DNA from: Arcobacter sp.
GTDB taxonomy: Bacteria; Campylobacterota; Campylobacteria; Campylobacterales; Arcobacteraceae
Assembly: GCA_020048055.1 (NCBI GenBank)
Contig: JAIFNA010000011.1
Coordinates: forward strand, 1-64,000
DNA: 64,000 bases
Direction of reading: 5' to 3'
Shown: piece after piece, positions 31,265-38,875 of the stretch
Layout of the letters: every line of letters begins with the position of its first letter
Position numbering within the stretch: the first letter of the stretch is position 1
Position numbers and translations under genes: made by a program
The notes under the pieces: model-generated
The model's database searches: none
Seen by the model: only the letters and a program-made list of their open reading frames with translations
Told to the model about the DNA's origin: nothing

Positions 31265-32860
31265 TTATGATTGTTTTAGCTCTGCTATTATTGCATCAGC
31301 AACCCTAAAACTGTTTGCATAAATTGTGTATGTATAAGGTACGCTTCCACCAGTTGGCATAAAACTTCCATCACTGACATACAAGTTTTTTGTATCCCAA
31401 ACTTTGCAGTTTTTATTTAACACTGATGTTTCGGGGTCGCTTCCAAATCTACAACCACCAGCTTGAAGATTTTGTGGTGGATATGGGGTAATATTTGTTT
31501 CTATATCTTTTGCCCCCAAATATTTTAGAAAAGAAACTGTTTTTTGTGCTATTTTGTTTCCAATAAGTTCATTTTGTGGGTGTGAGCCTATCCTTATTTT
31601 TGCTACATTTACCCCATATTTATCTTGATTGTTTTGATCAATCGATACAAAACAATCATCATGAGGTAGCCAATCGTTAAAAATCTCACAATCTAGCCTT
31701 TTTGTTGTGGTAAATTTTGTATTTAGTTTTTTATAAAACTCTTCTCCCCAAACAAGTTTTCCATTTTTGTCAAATTTTTGTGAAATTGCTTTTTTGATTG
31801 GGTTCGCATGTTCAAATAAAAATTCAACAATTCCACCTTTTTGTTTGTCGATTTTGTACCAATCTTTAATCGCTCGATTTACAAAATATCCCTCAGCAAA
31901 AAGTTTATTTTTTTCTAAAATATTACTATTAAGTTCGCCACTAACAATACCACCACCACTAAAAAGTAAATTTTTCCCAAGTTGGTTTGTGCTATTTCCT
32001 ATCCCATTTGGGTATTCATTAGATGTTGAATTAAAAAGTAATCTACAACTCTCAATGCTCCCACAGGCTACAACAAATATTTTTGCTTCTATTGTTTTTG
32101 TTGTTTTATTATCTTTATCGTATGCTACTAAACTTGTTACCTCACCTTTATTTGTGTTTAGCCTTTTTACATAAGTGTTTGGTAAAATTGTTAAGTTTCC
32201 TGTTTTTAGAGCTGGATTTAGAAGTGCTTCTCTACTACTACCTTTTGCTCCACTGCTACAACCATAACTTCCACAAAAATTTGAATAATAACATCCATCT
32301 CTATCACCTTTTTTATCTTTTAAGATAGCTCGTGGAGTTATTTGTGAATTTAGATTTAATTCTTTTGCTTTTTCATCTAAAAAAGCATTGATTGGGTGTT
32401 CAGTTGTATTTTTGGTAACCCCAACAATATCATCAACTTTTTGGTAATAGGGTAAAAATTCCTCATAACTAATGCACCAATCTTCTATGTTTGCACCATT
32501 TATTTCACCATAGATTGATTTTAACTTGAAGTCATTTTTCTCTAATTTATGAAAAAATCCACTCATAAAATTTGATGCTCCACCAACAATATTACCATTC
32601 CAAAAGTCCCATTTTGCATCTTTTGTTGTGTAGCTTTCCCATTTACCAGCCTTAAATTCTTCAATTGTGTGAAATTCATCGTCAAGTGATGGCGTAACAA
32701 CACTTCTTCTGCAATAAGCCAACTCATCTTTTGAAAAATCCTCTTTTTGCAAAAAGTTTCCTTTTTCGAGTACAGCAACTTTAAAACCATTTTTGCTTAG
32801 TTCATACGCAATAGGTCCAGCTCCAGCACCACTTCCAATAATACATAAATCAAACTGCAT
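31265..32860 (-). CDS. GMC-family FAD oxidoreductase
   Basis: FAD-binding Rossmann motif IIGSGAGAGPIAYELSKNG directly after the start, YSNFCGSYGCSSGAKGS in the middle, and the GMC C-terminal GGSVPYTYTIYANSFRVAD near the end. Related to the large subunit of gluconate 2-dehydrogenase and similar sugar or alcohol dehydrogenases. The frame extends 36 codons upstream into the small-subunit gene; the ATG at 32860 has AAAGGGG just before it. It overlaps the small subunit by 11 nt. The native substrate is unknown. Confidence 0.88.
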   Translation of the reverse strand: MQFDLCIIGSGAGAGPIAYELSKNGFKVAVLEKGNFLQKEDFSKDELAYCRRSVVTPSLDDEFHTIEEFKAGKWESYTTKDAKWDFWNGNIVGGASNFMSGFFHKLEKNDFKLKSIYGEINGANIEDWCISYEEFLPYYQKVDDIVGVTKNTTEHPINAFLDEKAKELNLNSQITPRAILKDKKGDRDGCYYSNFCGSYGCSSGAKGSSREALLNPALKTGNLTILPNTYVKRLNTNKGEVTSLVAYDKDNKTTKTIEAKIFVVACGSIESCRLLFNSTSNEYPNGIGNSTNQLGKNLLFSGGGIVSGELNSNILEKNKLFAEGYFVNRAIKDWYKIDKQKGGIVEFLFEHANPIKKAISQKFDKNGKLVWGEEFYKKLNTKFTTTKRLDCEIFNDWLPHDDCFVSIDQNNQDKYGVNVAKIRIGSHPQNELIGNKIAQKTVSFLKYLGAKDIETNITPYPPQNLQAGGCRFGSDPETSVLNKNCKVWDTKNLYVSDGSFMPTGGSVPYTYTIYANSFRVADAIIAELKQS

Positions 32861-33317
32861 ATTTCCCCTTTGGTCTAGGCTCACCCGCTTTATGTTTAAT
32901 AGATTTCCACCCCAAAGCATCTTTATTTCCACCATAAAGTGGATCACTAAGCATCGCTTCAAGTCCATAGTTCATAACTAAAGCTAACCATTCTTGTCCT
33001 ATTTGAGTATTTTCAAATATCCTTAACGTTTCTTCTGTCTCATTTTCGTTTTGATTCATAAAATTTTTATTTTCACCCAATAGTGCTTTGCTTCCATTTA
33101 TTAAAAAATCCAAATCTTTTTTATCAAAATATTTATCTTTTGTGACTTGAATTAAGAAATTTGATGCTTCAAGTATTGAAGAGCCACTGAAGTTTTTTGA
33201 TGCAGGGAACATATGATTTAGAGTAATTTTTATAATATCCCAACTATTTGGCGAGCTTTTGTATAAAGGTGTCGCTAAAAGCAATAAACCAAGGGCTATA
33301 AAATCTCTCCGTTTCAA
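32850..33317 (-). CDS. Gluconate 2-dehydrogenase subunit 3-like protein
   Basis: N-terminus MKRRDFIALGLLLLAT looks like a Tat-type leader with RR before a hydrophobic stretch. The C-terminus DPLYGGNKDALGWKSIKHKAGEPRPKG matches the conserved end of gluconate 2-dehydrogenase small subunits. It escorts the GMC flavoprotein (which has no leader of its own) out of the cytoplasm; this is the usual arrangement and is inferred here. First gene of a two-gene unit, divergent from the Cys-rich peptide gene. Confidence 0.82.
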   Translation of the reverse strand: MKRRDFIALGLLLLATPLYKSSPNSWDIIKITLNHMFPASKNFSGSSILEASNFLIQVTKDKYFDKKDLDFLINGSKALLGENKNFMNQNENETEETLRIFENTQIGQEWLALVMNYGLEAMLSDPLYGGNKDALGWKSIKHKAGEPRPKGKYAV

Positions 33318-33412: not shown

Positions 33413-33640
33413 ATGAAAAATACAATGTTAAAAATTGCTGTAGCTTCAATGTTTGTTGCTTTTGCATCTTTTGGTGTAGCTAATGCTTCTGAAAATGGAA
33501 AACCAACAATGAAATGTCAGGCTGGAAAATGTGGCGGAGCTTCTAAGTGTGGAAATGGAAAAGCAGAACCAGCTGACACTAATGCAACAAAAGGCAAAGG
33601 TAAATGTGGCGGAGCTTCAAAATGTGGTGGACAAAAATAA
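33413..33640 (+). CDS. Secreted KCG-repeat peptide (HvfA-like candidate)
   Basis: 75 aa: a signal peptide cleaved near VANAS, then a mature part dominated by Lys, Cys and Gly with four KCG units (QAGKCGG, ASKCGN, KGKCGG, ASKCGG). This resembles HvfA-type precursor peptides, whose EGKCG-like repeats are modified by DUF692 (MNIO) enzymes to metal-binding oxazolone/thioamide products. No DUF692 or DUF2063 gene is visible in this window, so modification is unproven. TMKCQAGKCG at 33506-33535 recurs exactly at the end of the DUF4395 protein. AGGGG precedes the ATG; a strong terminator follows. Confidence 0.75.
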   Translation: MKNTMLKIAVASMFVAFASFGVANASENGKPTMKCQAGKCGGASKCGNGKAEPADTNATKGKGKCGGASKCGGQK

Positions 33641-33668
33641 TCTTTTAGATTTTAATGTCTATTTTGTA

Positions 33669-33696
33669 AGTGGAGTTTAAACACTCCACTTTTTTT
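33669..33696 (+). terminator. Intrinsic terminator
   Basis: AGTGGAGT (33669-33676) pairs with ACTCCACT (33683-33690), followed by six more T. It ends the KCG-peptide gene. Confidence 0.92.
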
Positions 33697-33707
33697 ATGT
33701 CCATTTT

Positions 33708-34400
33708 TTATTTCATACCTGCACCACATTTTCCTGCTTGACATTTCATTGTTTGTTGTTTTGTTGTTTCTATTTTTGTTTGTTCATTTTTGATTTTTAT
33801 CGATTTGTAAACAAATGTAAATACGCTTGAAATAAATACAATTAAGATGATTTTTTGAAGTATTGAAAATGTTTGTATTTCATCTTTTTGTCTTATTTCG
33901 CATACTCCACCTGGGCAAAGTGTTGGATTTTCCTTGTATATAAGATTAAAAATTTTACATCCGATACAAATTCCAAAAGCAGATTCACTAAACAAAAGCA
34001 CAAGACACAAAATACAAATAAAAAGTTTGATTGGAGTCATAATCTCAAATACAACAATCAAAAAAAACATAATGATTGAAAGATAAAGCCCAATATACCA
34101 AGCCCATTTTTTTTGTGGGGCAGCTACATATTCTGGAATTTGATTTTGTATCATAACTCTACCGAGTAGTAAGCTCGGAGAATATTTTGGATTTATAAAA
34201 ATTCTAATAATAAAATCGATCATAAAAACAGTCACAAAGATTTTTGTAAAAGTAAAATCGTGAAAAATAAATGAGTTATTAAATGAGATAAATCCAAATA
34301 AAAAAAGTATCCCAGCACCAGCTCTTGCTTCCCTTTCATTTAAGACTTTGATATCGTAACCTTTTACAGTTTCTCCAAAATATATATATTTATTTTCCAA
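33708..34400 (-). CDS. DUF4395 membrane protein with KCG C-terminal tail
   Basis: Opening GYDIKVLNEREARAGAG, NPKYSPSLLLGR and the paired cysteines CIGCKIF and CPGGVC are the DUF4395 pattern, with four or more membrane segments. After a last membrane helix, a short linker (KIKNEQTKIETTKQQ) leads to a C-terminal TMKCQAGKCGAGMK, the same ten residues as in the adjacent secreted peptide. The CPGGVC pair suggests a redox or metal role. The start is TTG with AAGGA 8 nt upstream. Convergent with the peptide gene. The tail appears to be an added module rather than part of the domain. Confidence 0.78.
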   Translation of the reverse strand: MENKYIYFGETVKGYDIKVLNEREARAGAGILFLFGFISFNNSFIFHDFTFTKIFVTVFMIDFIIRIFINPKYSPSLLLGRVMIQNQIPEYVAAPQKKWAWYIGLYLSIIMFFLIVVFEIMTPIKLFICILCLVLLFSESAFGICIGCKIFNLIYKENPTLCPGGVCEIRQKDEIQTFSILQKIILIVFISSVFTFVYKSIKIKNEQTKIETTKQQTMKCQAGKCGAGMK

Positions 34401-34617: not shown

Positions 34618-34735
34618 GAAAGAAAATTAAGAGGCAGGAGGACTCGCCCTGCATCTCTCTTATACCAATACTGCCCTGCATAAATGCCAAAGGGTATAAG
34701 GCTTGTGGATGTCCATATTTCCACCTCTCTTAATT
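34618..34735 (-). ncRNA. Candidate structured RNA, multibranch, unknown family
   Basis: Closing stem of 9 bp (34625-34633 with 34727-34735) encloses three stems: 34634-34638/34648-34652, 34659-34666/34693-34700 (8 bp, long loop) and 34705-34709/34720-34724. On the minus strand a TATAAT (34747-34742) sits 7 nt before the first base of the closing stem, and the closing stem is followed by a T-rich end (TTTTCTTT), as for a transcript with its own terminator. I do not recognise it as SRP RNA, 6S RNA, tmRNA or RNase P RNA. Confidence 0.6.
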
Positions 34736-35092: not shown

Positions 35093-38000
35093 ATGATAAC
35101 AAAAGAGAATTTCAAAAAAGTATTAGAATTTTTAGGATTTAGCGAAGCAAACAACATCTTCACTAAAAAATTTGATGAATTTGATTGTGAACTTAAAGCA
35201 GATTTTCAAAACGAACAATTGATTTATCCTGAATCTAAAGGCTTAAAAGTTAATTCAAGAGAAGTTTGTGGATTTTCAAAACCAGAATATTTTGTTCAGT
35301 TTGAATGTGTCTATAAACTTTTATCTCAAGGATACAATCCAGCTCATATAGAACTAGAACCAAGATGGCAAGTAGGACATGGAAATAGTGGCGGGGAAGC
35401 TGATATTTTAGTCAAAGATAACGATGAAAAGTCACTTCTTATCATAGAGTGTAAAACAGCAGGGGCTGAATTTTCAAAAGCTTGGAACACTACACAAAGT
35501 AAACCAACACAAGTGTTTACATATGCACAACAAACGAGAACTACAAAGTTTATTTCACTTTATGCAAGTGATTTTGTTGATAATCAAGTCGTATCAAATT
35601 ATTTTCTTATAAGTGTTAGCGATAACGATGAATTACTTAAAAACAATCCAAAACTTCAAAGTTATAAAAATGCTTCAACAGTAGAAGAAATTTATAAAGT
35701 TTGGGTGGAAACTTACGGAAAAGATTTTGCAACACTTGGACTATTTGAAGATAACAAAGCTTATGATATAGGAAAAACAAAATTTACTTCAAAAGACTTA
35801 AAAAATATCAACTCAAAAGATATTCAAGGTAAATATCATGAATTTGCCACGATTTTGAGACAACACAATGTAAGTGGCAGGGAGAATGCCTTTGATAAAC
35901 TTGTCAATCTTTTTTTATGTAAAGTGGTCGATGAAAAAGAAAATCCAAAAGAGCTGAAATTTTACTGGAAAGGAAAGGCTTACGATAATCCATTTGATTT
36001 TCAAGATAGGCTTCAACAACTCTATAAAAATGGAATGGAAAAGTTTTTAGGCGAAACTATCACATATATTGACAATAACCAAATAGATGAAGCTTTTGAA
36101 GTTTTCAAAAATAAACCAAATGCTACAAAAGATAAAATCAAAGAGTTTCTAAAAGCTCAAAAGTTTTTTACAAACAACGATTTTGCTTTTATTGATGTAC
36201 ACAATGAAAAACTTTTTTATCAAAATTTTGATGTTCTTCTTAAGATTTCAAGACTTATTCAAGATATTAGTTTAACTGGAAGTGATGAAAATCAATTTTT
36301 GGGAGATATGTTTGAAGGATTTCTTGACCAAGGTGTGAAACAATCAGAGGGGCAATTTTTTACCCCAATGCCAATAGTAAAATTTATCATTAATTCACTT
36401 CCAACAAAAGAAAATCCAAAAGTTATAGACTATGCTTGTGGTGCTGGACACTTCTTAAATGAGTATGCTTCCACTTCAAAAGATGCTTCAATCGTAGGTA
36501 TTGAAAAAGAGTACCGACTGAGTAAAGTTGCCAAAGTTAGCTCATTTATGTATGGAAGTGAAATAAATATTATCTACAGTGATGCACTCTCAAAAAGTGA
36601 AAAAGTAAAAGAAAATAGTTTTGATGTCTTAATCGCAAATCCTCCGTATAGTGTCAAAGGCTTTTTGGAGACTTTGAGTGAAGATGATAGAAAGCTTTAT
36701 GAACTTCTTGAGACTATCGAAGAGAAAAGCTACACAGCAAACAATGCCATAGAGTGCTTTTTTATCGAACGAGCAAAACATCTTTTATGTAAAGATGCAG
36801 TCGCTGGGATAGTAGTACCAAGTAGTATTCTAAATAAAGGAAGTCAATCTATCTCTACAAATAAAGGAAATGTCTATGTCGGAACAAGAGAAATCATCCT
36901 TAAATATTTTGACATCGTAGCGATAGCAGAATTTGGAAGTGGAACTTTTGGAAAAACTGGAACAAATACCGTAACACTCTTTTTGAAAAGAAGAGGAGAA
37001 AATCCAAAGATAAGTGAACATCTTAAAAATATGGTTGATAGTTGGTTTGAGTGTGATTTTGAGACAAACAAAGCCTTTGATGACGATGAACTTCTTTTAA
37101 AATATTGTAGTCATATTGAGGTGGATTTTGAGATTTATAAAACTCTTTTATGTCAAGATTTAGACGAAAGAATTTTTGAAAAAGATACTTTCAAAGAGTA
37201 TAAAAACGAGTTTGAAAAACTAAGTGAAACAAAAAATAGAAGAAAATCAAGAATGTACATGGCATTAGCCAAAGAAAAAAAAGAGGCAAAAGAAACATTT
37301 GAACTTGTAAAATATATCAGACTTATAGAAAAAGATAAATTTTACTATTTTTGCCTTGCTTCTAAAAACTCTTGTGATGTGGTTATAGTTAAATCGCCAT
37401 CAAAGAAAAAAGAAGAAAAAGGTAGCAATGAAATTAAAAAATTTCTTGGCTATTCGTGGAGTGGTGCAAAAGGAAAAGAAGGAATACAGTACATAGGCAA
37501 AACAATTTTCAAAAGTGATGATGATTCAGAATTTGATAAGGACGATGCAAGAATCTTAAATAATCTTGTAAATTTAAACAATATTCACACACCACTTTAT
37601 AATCCACAAAATAGTGATGATAGTACAAAAATAAATAAAATCATCAAAGATAATTTCTCTGGCATTTCGAGTGAAACGAAGCAATCCATAGCCATTCCAG
37701 CAGAGTTAGAAAACTTTGTCAGTCGTGCAAGGCTTATTGATATGCTTGATTTTAGTCGAGTTGATTTTAATAAGGCAATAGGATTAAATCCAAACAAAAA
37801 AATTGAAATTATTGGAAAACCTGAATGGCAAAGAAAATTGGGTGATGTTGTTGAAGTTTTGATAGGCGGAACACCATCAAGAGCCAAAAGTGAATATTTT
37901 GAAGGGCAAAATTTATGGGTTTCTATTTCTGAAATGAATGGACAAATCATTAATGATACAAAAGAAAAAATTTCTACTGAGGGAATAAAAAAATCAAATG

Positions 38001-38875
38001 TAAAACTTATACCAAAAGGAACAACATTACTAAGTTTTAAACTTTCTATTGGCAAAACTGCTATTGCAGGACAAGATTTATATACAAATGAAGCTATTGC
38101 AGGACTTATTCCAAAAACAAAAGAATTGAGAGATGATTATTTATTTCACTTATTTAATGGAAAAATAATTGATTTAGAAAAAGATAGCTTTAATACTTTT
38201 GGTAAAAGTTTAAATAGTGCATTTTTGAAAAATGAAGTTAAAATTCCCCTCCCACCTCTTGATATTCAAGAACAAATTGTAAAAGAGTGCCAAAAAGTAG
38301 ATGATGAAGTTTTAGAAGCAAATAAGACGATAGAACAAACTAAAAGAGATATTGAAAATGAAATAAATTCTGTAAATGGAGATATGGTTAAGCTTGTTGA
38401 TATTTTCGTTTTACAAAATGGTAAAGCAATGCCAAAAAATAAAATGACAGATGGAAATATCCCTGTTTATGGCGGAAATGGAATTATGGGTTATCATAAT
38501 GAAAGTTTGATTGATTATCCAACTATATCAGTAGGTAGAGTTGGAGAATATTGTGGTGCTATACATATTACAGACGCTAAATCTTGGATTTCTGATAATT
38601 CAATGTTTATTACTAAATTTACAAAGGATGTTGATATAAAATTTATATACTTTAGTTTAGTTAAATTAAATTTGAATCAATATGCAAATAAAACAAGTCA
38701 GCCAAATATTTCGCAACCTATTATTTTATCAAAAAGCATCCCTCTCCCACCTCTTGAAACCCAAAAACAAATCGTTTCAAAAATAGAAATTTCAGAAAGT
38801 AAAATAAGTGATGCTAAAAAAGTTATTGATGGTGCGAAAGAGAAAAAAGAAGATATTTTGCGAAAGTTTTTATAA
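35093..38875 (+). CDS. Single-chain restriction-modification-specificity enzyme (type IIG / type I-like)
   Basis: 1260 aa with three parts. An N-terminal PD-(D/E)xK-type nuclease: GGEADILV and IIECKTAG around residues 100-124. A central N6-adenine methylase of the HsdM class: QSEGQFFTP, DYACGAGHF (about 445) and catalytic NPPYSV (about 517). A C-terminal HsdS-like part from about residue 915 with two target-recognition domains, each ending in a PLPPL motif before a coiled coil. One polypeptide can thus both methylate and cut; the recognition site cannot be predicted. Followed 49 nt later by a zinc-ribbon gene. Sits in an accessory island. Confidence 0.9.
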   Translation: MITKENFKKVLEFLGFSEANNIFTKKFDEFDCELKADFQNEQLIYPESKGLKVNSREVCGFSKPEYFVQFECVYKLLSQGYNPAHIELEPRWQVGHGNSGGEADILVKDNDEKSLLIIECKTAGAEFSKAWNTTQSKPTQVFTYAQQTRTTKFISLYASDFVDNQVVSNYFLISVSDNDELLKNNPKLQSYKNASTVEEIYKVWVETYGKDFATLGLFEDNKAYDIGKTKFTSKDLKNINSKDIQGKYHEFATILRQHNVSGRENAFDKLVNLFLCKVVDEKENPKELKFYWKGKAYDNPFDFQDRLQQLYKNGMEKFLGETITYIDNNQIDEAFEVFKNKPNATKDKIKEFLKAQKFFTNNDFAFIDVHNEKLFYQNFDVLLKISRLIQDISLTGSDENQFLGDMFEGFLDQGVKQSEGQFFTPMPIVKFIINSLPTKENPKVIDYACGAGHFLNEYASTSKDASIVGIEKEYRLSKVAKVSSFMYGSEINIIYSDALSKSEKVKENSFDVLIANPPYSVKGFLETLSEDDRKLYELLETIEEKSYTANNAIECFFIERAKHLLCKDAVAGIVVPSSILNKGSQSISTNKGNVYVGTREIILKYFDIVAIAEFGSGTFGKTGTNTVTLFLKRRGENPKISEHLKNMVDSWFECDFETNKAFDDDELLLKYCSHIEVDFEIYKTLLCQDLDERIFEKDTFKEYKNEFEKLSETKNRRKSRMYMALAKEKKEAKETFELVKYIRLIEKDKFYYFCLASKNSCDVVIVKSPSKKKEEKGSNEIKKFLGYSWSGAKGKEGIQYIGKTIFKSDDDSEFDKDDARILNNLVNLNNIHTPLYNPQNSDDSTKINKIIKDNFSGISSETKQSIAIPAELENFVSRARLIDMLDFSRVDFNKAIGLNPNKKIEIIGKPEWQRKLGDVVEVLIGGTPSRAKSEYFEGQNLWVSISEMNGQIINDTKEKISTEGIKKSNVKLIPKGTTLLSFKLSIGKTAIAGQDLYTNEAIAGLIPKTKELRDDYLFHLFNGKIIDLEKDSFNTFGKSLNSAFLKNEVKIPLPPLDIQEQIVKECQKVDDEVLEANKTIEQTKRDIENEINSVNGDMVKLVDIFVLQNGKAMPKNKMTDGNIPVYGGNGIMGYHNESLIDYPTISVGRVGEYCGAIHITDAKSWISDNSMFITKFTKDVDIKFIYFSLVKLNLNQYANKTSQPNISQPIILSKSIPLPPLETQKQIVSKIEISESKISDAKKVIDGAKEKKEDILRKFL

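What the first reader, a model, noticed from the sequence alone, without database searches (positions are those of the whole stretch)
33413..34400. Secreted KCG-repeat peptide and membrane protein share an identical TMKCQAGKCG motif
The signal-peptide-bearing Cys/Gly/Lys peptide (33413-33640) and the C-terminal tail of the convergent DUF4395 protein (33708-34400) share TMKCQAGKCG exactly (33506-33535 and 33723-33752). At the DNA level the ten codons differ at three third positions (CAG/CAA, GCT/GCA, GGC/GGT), all silent, so the peptide is under selection rather than freshly copied. The peptide looks like HvfA-type precursors, whose KCG repeats are modified by DUF692 enzymes, but no DUF692 gene is in view. 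A membrane protein carrying the same motif as a tail could be a receptor, a metal hand-over site or a second substrate of one modifying enzyme.
Basis: partly seen in the sequence, partly recalled or inferred. Interest (0 to 1): 0.8.

Follow-up and report, generated by a model that had tools for sequence, protein, structure and literature searches.

The report
Shared metal-binding tag, secreted and membrane-tethered
A small secreted bacterial peptide and the loose tail of a neighbouring membrane protein carry the same two-cysteine tag, one that related bacteria also attach to the ends of many copper- and mercury-handling proteins, so the tag is probably a portable binding site for metals outside the cell membrane.

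Summary
In detail: TMKCQAGKCG occurs exactly in the secreted peptide (33413-33640) and in the DUF4395 tail (33708-34400), with three silent differences, and KCxxGKCG occurs nowhere else in the near-complete genome. The HvfA/MNIO reading is only partly right. The genome has no DUF692/MNIO and no DUF2063, and 89 of 106 motif-bearing genomes of the order lack MNIO. Next to an MNIO gene the first Cys is always followed by Gly (20/20); in MNIO-less genomes often not (37/98; here Gln). The pairing is real: related DUF4395 proteins keep the tail although the linker diverges, and two Campylobacterales genomes have peptide-DUF4395-Gluconate_2-dh3-GMC in a row, the same four genes as in the window. Order-wide the motif is a portable, mostly terminal tag on exported proteins, including metal-handling ones (CusB-type adaptor, NosL, MerT-HMA) and DsbD_2, YtkA and cytochromes. 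DUF4395 tails change type, and in SUP05-type bacteria another tail type is a separate secreted peptide. Best reading: an MNIO-independent periplasmic C-x4-C soft-metal site in a mobile and a membrane-tethered form, for buffering and hand-over. Metal binding and hand-over are inferred, not shown.

The parts
33413..33640 (+). 75-aa secreted Cys/Gly/Lys peptide, mobile carrier of the motif (5 Cys: MKCQAGKCG GASKCG ... KGKCGGASKCGG)
   Evidence: ORF with signal-peptide-like N-terminus; no Pfam match, no NCBIfam match above cut-off; same kind of gene directly before DUF4395 in L089 and L090
33506..33535 (+). motif copy 1, TMKCQAGKCG, in the peptide
   Evidence: sequence; one of only two KCxxGKCG matches in the genome
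33708..34400 (-). long-form DUF4395 membrane protein (230 aa), five predicted TM helices
   Evidence: PF14340 1.8e-23; AlphaFold2 helices 22-46, 50-69, 94-117, 123-142, 180-217
33723..33752 (-). motif copy 2, TMKCQAGKCG, in the C-terminal tail
   Evidence: sequence; tail predicted disordered, pLDDT below 50 in residues 211-219 and 226-230; inferred periplasmic
33894..33968 (-). Cys pairs CIGC and CPGGVC after TM4, inferred to face the cytosol
   Evidence: the two Cys of CIGC and the two of CPGGVC are invariant in 14 long-form DUF4395 proteins (C145, C148, C162, C167)
33668..33691 (.). terminator-like hairpin between the two convergent genes
   Evidence: 9-bp stem followed by T run
32850..33317 (-). 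Gluconate_2-dh3-like protein (GMC partner subunit), part of the four-gene cassette
   Evidence: PF13618 E=4.9e-4, below the curated cut-off here; orthologous position in L089, where the match passes the cut-off (3.7e-7), and in L090, L073, L076
31265..32968 (-). GMC-family FAD oxidoreductase, part of the four-gene cassette (the listed ORF start overlaps the previous gene; the true start is probably downstream)
   Evidence: PF00732 2e-19, PF05199 6.4e-16; same neighbour in L073, L076, L089, L090

Best explanation
The two genes make a mobile and a membrane-tethered form of one periplasmic dithiol site, M-K-C-x-[AP]-G-K-C-G. The peptide is exported by Sec and its Cys pairs bind a soft metal, most likely Cu(I). 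The DUF4395 protein spans the membrane five times with the tail outside and two further Cys pairs (CIGC, CPGGVC) near the inner face, so the tail can take metal from, or give it to, the peptide next to a MerC/MerT-like conduit. No MNIO modification is needed. Shown: the shared motif, its conservation and rarity, the absence of MNIO, the association of the four genes, the use of the motif as a mostly terminal tag on exported proteins including metal-handling ones, and exchange between fused tail and separate peptide for another DUF4395 tail type. Inferred: tail outside, metal binding, identity of the metal, direction of hand-over.
For: Motif confined to these two genes. Tail kept in relatives (MKCAAGKCG, MKCSPGKCG, MKCETGKCG, MKCQSGKCG) while the linker diverges. 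Peptide directly before tailed DUF4395, then Gluconate_2-dh3 and GMC, in L089 and L090. Of 168 distinct carrier ORFs, 159 have an N-terminal hydrophobic export-type segment and 5 of the other 9 are DUF4395; 45 of 55 carriers longer than 150 aa hold the motif at the C-terminus or the mature N-terminus. Carriers include CusB/HlyD adaptor 8.7e-51, NosL 4.1e-16, MerT 4.8e-14 plus HMA 6.6e-13, DsbD_2 1.8e-51, YtkA 7.8e-25, cytochrome P460, cytochrome c. Same-strand neighbours of long-form DUF4395: LMWPc 5, HMA 4, ArsP 3, ArsR 3, MsrA 2, MsrB 2 of 106; a signal-peptide HMA protein 6 bp upstream in L293. Fused versus separate form of another tail type: L115, L129, L158, nested among fused ones in the tree. 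No MNIO or DUF2063.
Against: No metal was measured. The topology rests on helix count and charge (one search gives only a modest bias, and the tail itself is basic). In the window the genes are convergent with a terminator between them, in G003 and G007 the peptide is on another contig, and no second carrier was found in G006 (92% complete). GMC and Gluconate_2-dh3 are not metal proteins, and MsrA/B neighbours fit a thiol-redox role too. Cytochrome c and YtkA carriers are not diagnostic of metal handling. No solved fold resembles the model.
Confidence: 0.55

Rival explanations
1. Thiol-disulfide relay: DUF4395 carries electrons across the membrane through its Cys pairs and the tail passes them to the peptide or to periplasmic reductases, as DsbD-type proteins do.
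For: Invariant Cys pairs; DsbD_2 proteins carry the same C-terminal tag; DUF4395 next to MsrA and MsrB in L074 and L071.
Against: C-x4-C is an unusual redox motif; CusB, NosL and MerT-HMA carriers and HMA and ars neighbours point to metal(loid)s.
Confidence: 0.2
2. MNIO-type RiPP: both motifs are thiooxazole-modified precursors, as proposed by the first reader.
For: HvfA repeats AEGKCGEGKCG and FonA AKCGEGKCG have the same C-x4-C spacing (PMC13419390, PMC13097082); in G002 (same genus) an MNIO cluster with a KCG peptide lies close to a DUF4395 gene with a GKCG tail (L071).
Against: No MNIO or DUF2063 in this genome; 89 of 106 motif-bearing genomes lack MNIO; Cys+1 is Gly in 20/20 motifs beside MNIO but Gln here.
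Confidence: 0.05
3. The motifs are modified by an unknown, non-MNIO enzyme that reads MKCxxGKCG as a recognition tag.
For: The tag is short, mostly terminal and attached to unrelated proteins, like known C-terminal processing tags (from general knowledge).
Against: No co-inherited enzyme was looked for systematically; Cys and Lys spacing alone explains metal binding; the cassette holds only a GMC/Gluconate_2-dh3 oxidase as a candidate enzyme.
Confidence: 0.12
4. The identity is a local sequence copy: part of the tail was duplicated into the neighbouring peptide gene without functional meaning.
For: T and Q are shared only by this adjacent pair among the same-genus genomes; the peptides of G003 and G007 read EMKCAPGKCG.
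Against: Only silent changes since; TMKCQAGKCG also ends the DUF4395 of a Sulfurovum MAG (L092); peptide and tailed DUF4395 adjoin in L089 and L090. Copying may explain the exact identity, not the association.
Confidence: 0.08

Closest known systems
Oxazolin / captophorin / Buf_EGKCG precursors (HvfA, FonA)
   Same: Sec-exported small peptide, Lys-Cys-Gly repeats, same C-x4-C spacing in the doublet (KCGEGKCG); tied to copper in the literature (PMC13097082, PMC12452194)
   Different: No EGKCG unit, no MNIO, no DUF2063 in the genome; Gln after the first Cys
MerC|bufferin and Buf1|cytochrome c fusion proteins
   Same: A Cys-rich peptide domain fused to a membrane metal transporter with five TM segments and periplasmic C-terminus, or to a cytochrome (PMC12452194)
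   Different: Here the membrane part is DUF4395, the tail is a 9-residue motif without any bufferin domain, and no MNIO is present
MerT/MerP mercuric uptake
   Same: Periplasmic dithiol carrier plus membrane protein with Cys pairs; a MerT-HMA protein of a related genome carries the same tag (L287), and one DUF4395 has a periplasmic HMA protein directly upstream (L293)
   Different: DUF4395 is a different Pfam family; transport not shown
DUF4395 (PF14340)
   Same: Window protein matches well above cut-off
   Different: Long form with a fifth TM helix and a Cys tail; the family has no known function and only two papers in the library mention it

Membership tests
Oxazolin/captophorin precursor (HvfA type) | Sec signal peptide | tested here: met
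   Hydrophobic N-terminus ending ...GVANA in the 75-aa ORF; judged from sequence, no signal-peptide program
Oxazolin/captophorin precursor (HvfA type) | Repeated EGKCG motif | tested here: not met
   Motifs are MKCQAGKCG, ASKCG, KGKCG, ASKCG
Oxazolin/captophorin precursor (HvfA type) | MNIO (PF05114) modifying enzyme | tested here: not met
   No match in the 99.99% complete genome; control genomes ring
Oxazolin/captophorin precursor (HvfA type) | DUF2063 (PF09836) partner protein | tested here: not met
   No match in the genome; control rings
Oxazolin/captophorin precursor (HvfA type) | Thiooxazole on Cys | not testable with these tools
   Needs mass spectrometry
DUF4395 | PF14340 domain | tested here: met
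   1.8e-23, 83.7 bits, cut-off 24.5
MerT/MerC-like metal transporter (works like) | Same protein family as MerT or MerC | tested here: not met
   Only PF14340 matches; no PDB fold match
MerT/MerC-like metal transporter (works like) | Metal transport | not testable with these tools
   Only indirect support: HMA and ars neighbours
Portable KCxxGKCG tag of Campylobacterales exported proteins (defined here) | Motif at the C-terminus or mature N-terminus of an exported or membrane protein | tested here: met
   Tail motif ends 4 residues from the C-terminus; peptide motif about 8 residues after the presumed cleavage site; order-wide pattern

The most novel reading that the evidence does not exclude
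Campylobacterales use a short, interchangeable C-x4-C tag, independent of MNIO enzymes, as a common docking code that links periplasmic carrier peptides with efflux adaptors, chaperones, cytochromes and membrane transporters; DUF4395 is the membrane port of this network, and other lineages use a second code (C..P..A...GHEEKWKLHN.C) that exists both as a DUF4395 tail and as a free peptide.
Probability: 0.3. Interest if true: 0.82.

Novelty: new variant of a known kind. Interest (0 to 1): 0.64.

Why it matters
KCG-repeat peptides are known as substrates of MNIO enzymes. Here most genomes of the order that carry the motif have no such enzyme, and the motif is a mostly terminal tag on unrelated exported proteins, several with known metal roles. 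If the tag is a shared hand-over site, it would explain how metals are passed between soluble and membrane proteins in these bacteria, give a first role to DUF4395, and offer a simple sequence handle for finding further members of periplasmic metal systems. It also suggests how RiPP precursor repeats may arise from, or decay into, plain metal-binding tags.

Tried and rejected
MNIO modification in this organism: rejected, no PF05114 or PF09836 in the genome. Chance or low-complexity identity: rejected by pattern searches with reversed control. DUF4395 tail unique to this genome: rejected. Fold search of the DUF4395 model against the PDB: no usable match, best E 2.7, so no structural family is claimed. 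NCBIfam for peptide and DUF4395: nothing above cut-off. Literature: only two papers mention DUF4395, neither about function by title; no paper found on the tag in Campylobacterota; a Campylobacter jejuni copper paper does not mention TauE/SafE or DsbD proteins. The association of motif and DUF4395 across genomes (72 of 106 motif genomes against 47 of 293 others) is inflated by shared ancestry and by DUF4395 tails being carriers themselves; it is not used as main evidence. The Cys+1 test counts motifs, not independent events, and was made on a hand-copied list of most, not all, matches.

Full report
Observation. The peptide (33413-33640, +) and the DUF4395 protein (33708-34400, -) exist as described, and TMKCQAGKCG is present in both at 33506-33535 and 33723-33752 with three silent codon differences. 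The DUF4395 assignment is firm (PF14340, 1.8e-23). The genome (G000, 1.997 Mb, 99.99% complete) has exactly two matches to a KCxxGKCG DNA pattern, these two, and none to the reversed pattern. Of seven shorter GKCG-type matches, three lie in these genes; the others are not in believable Cys-rich ORFs. The genes converge on a terminator-like hairpin.

No MNIO here. PF05114 (DUF692) and PF09836 (DUF2063) have no match in the genome, while control genomes ring. In 399 genomes of the order, 106 carry the KCxxGKCG pattern and 39 an MNIO; only 17 carry both, so 89 of 106 motif genomes have no detectable MNIO. The reversed pattern hits about ten genomes. Where the peptide gene lies next to an MNIO gene, the residue after the first Cys is Gly in 20 of 20 motifs (12 genomes); in MNIO-less genomes it is Gly in 37 of 98, else mostly Ala or Gln (Fisher 6e-8; motifs are not independent). 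Published work reports a preference of a related MNIO for the Cys-Gly dyad (PMC13097082). The window motif has Gln. The doublet spacing is nevertheless that of HvfA (AEGKCGEGKCG, PMC13419390), so common ancestry or convergence on the same metal geometry remains open.

The tail is real and conserved. In the same genus, G006, G003 and G007 end in MKCAAGKCGASMR, MKCSPGKCGGSSK and MKCAAGKCGNGK although the preceding linker is unalike. Sulfuricurvum, Sulfurovum and other Campylobacterales MAGs end in KCGSGKCESGKCGGAK, MKCETGKCGSGM, TMKCQAGKCGSSM, MKCQSGKCGGGQ. The last but one, in L092, holds the identical ten residues.

The two carriers belong together. In L089 and L090 a secreted MKCGDGKCG peptide gene lies directly before the tailed DUF4395 gene, followed by Gluconate_2-dh3 and GMC oxidoreductase genes. 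The window holds the same four genes in another order; G003 and G007 keep DUF4395 divergent from Gluconate_2-dh3-GMC and have the peptide on another contig. Of the genomes with a KCG-tailed DUF4395 that were searched whole, all except G006 (92% complete) hold at least one further carrier (in G448 the tail itself departs from the pattern). In G002 of the same genus, a DUF4395 with a GKCG tail lies about 2 kb from an MNIO gene with its KCG peptide.

The motif is a portable tag. Carriers collected across the order gave 168 distinct ORFs: 159 have an N-terminal hydrophobic segment, and the nine others are five DUF4395 membrane proteins and four ORFs with truncated or unclear starts. Of 55 carriers longer than 150 aa, 34 have the motif within 12 residues of the C-terminus, 7 at the mature N-terminus and 4 at both. 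Pfam names them: CusB-type RND adaptor (8.7e-51), NosL (4.1e-16), MerT with HMA (4.8e-14, 6.6e-13), DsbD_2 (1.8e-51), YtkA (7.8e-25), cytochrome P460 (3.5e-28), cytochromes c. NosL, CusB and MerT belong to families known for copper or mercury handling (general knowledge).

DUF4395 tails are exchangeable. In a tree of 72 long-form DUF4395 cores, four tail states (KCG, a C..P..A...GHEEKWKLHN.C type, none, and split) need ten changes, the KCG state at least two (quick tree, some branches weak). In SUP05-type bacteria (L115, L129, L158) the DUF4395 has no tail, and a small secreted peptide with the second motif is encoded just downstream; these sit inside the fused-tail clade. So a DUF4395 tail and a free secreted peptide are interchangeable in at least this second case, which is the pattern suggested for the window.

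DUF4395 and metals. Same-strand neighbours of long-form DUF4395 genes (106 proteins) match LMWPc (5), HMA (4), ArsP_1 (3), ArsR-type regulator (3), metallo-beta-lactamase (3), MsrA and MsrB (2 each); ArsR and LMWPc lie together beside DUF4395 in L107 and L118, and in L293 a signal-peptide HMA protein ends 6 bp before it. No background rate was computed for these counts. AlphaFold2 gives five long helices and a disordered tail (mean pLDDT 76). Loop charges fit N-in, C-out only modestly; the export of free peptides with the tail motifs supports a periplasmic tail. Two Cys pairs (CIGC, CPGGVC) are invariant and would lie at the inner face.

Mechanism. Most likely the peptide is a mobile periplasmic soft-metal carrier and the DUF4395 tail its tethered counterpart beside a membrane conduit. 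Thiol-redox relay is the main rival, an unknown modifying enzyme the next. Binding, metal identity and direction are not shown.

Noticed in passing
L115:2442-2651, L129:6587-6823, L158:2246-2494: Small secreted peptides with C..P..A..(I)GHEE.W..HNGC just downstream of tail-less DUF4395 genes; the same motif is the fused DUF4395 tail in many Pseudomonadota and Campylobacterota. The two peptides scanned (L115, L158) match no Pfam family.
   Followed up: partly
L096:13801-14595, L198, L202, L245, L257, L267, L272, L274, L277, L281: DsbD_2 (TauE/SafE-like) membrane proteins, most of them ending in MKCAPGKCG, a nearly fixed C-terminus in Sulfurovum-like genomes.
   Followed up: partly
L258:5066-6178: CusB-type efflux adaptor with MKCEAGKCG at its mature N-terminus.
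   Followed up: partly
L074:9268-10226, L071:17272-18465: msrA and msrB (separate and signal-peptide-bearing in L074, one fused gene in L071) beside long-form DUF4395.
   Followed up: partly
L293:3647-3967: Signal-peptide HMA (MerP-like) protein gene 6 bp upstream of a DUF4395 gene.
   Followed up: partly
window 34626-34734 (-): Rfam match to skipping-rope RNA (RF02924, 42.4 bits, E 3.4e-8).
   Followed up: no
window 35093-38875 (+): 1260-aa protein with HSDR_N_2-like start, N6_Mtase and Methylase_S domains: a type I/IIG-like restriction-modification fusion.
   Followed up: no
L098, L121: Long-form DUF4395 contigs labelled Woesearchaeota and Paceibacterota; probably wrongly binned bacterial contigs.
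   Followed up: no
L275:1480-1662, L310:1351-1533, L318:293-577: Very small single-TM proteins ending in KCESGKCESGKCG-type tails, another membrane-tethered form of the tag.
   Followed up: no
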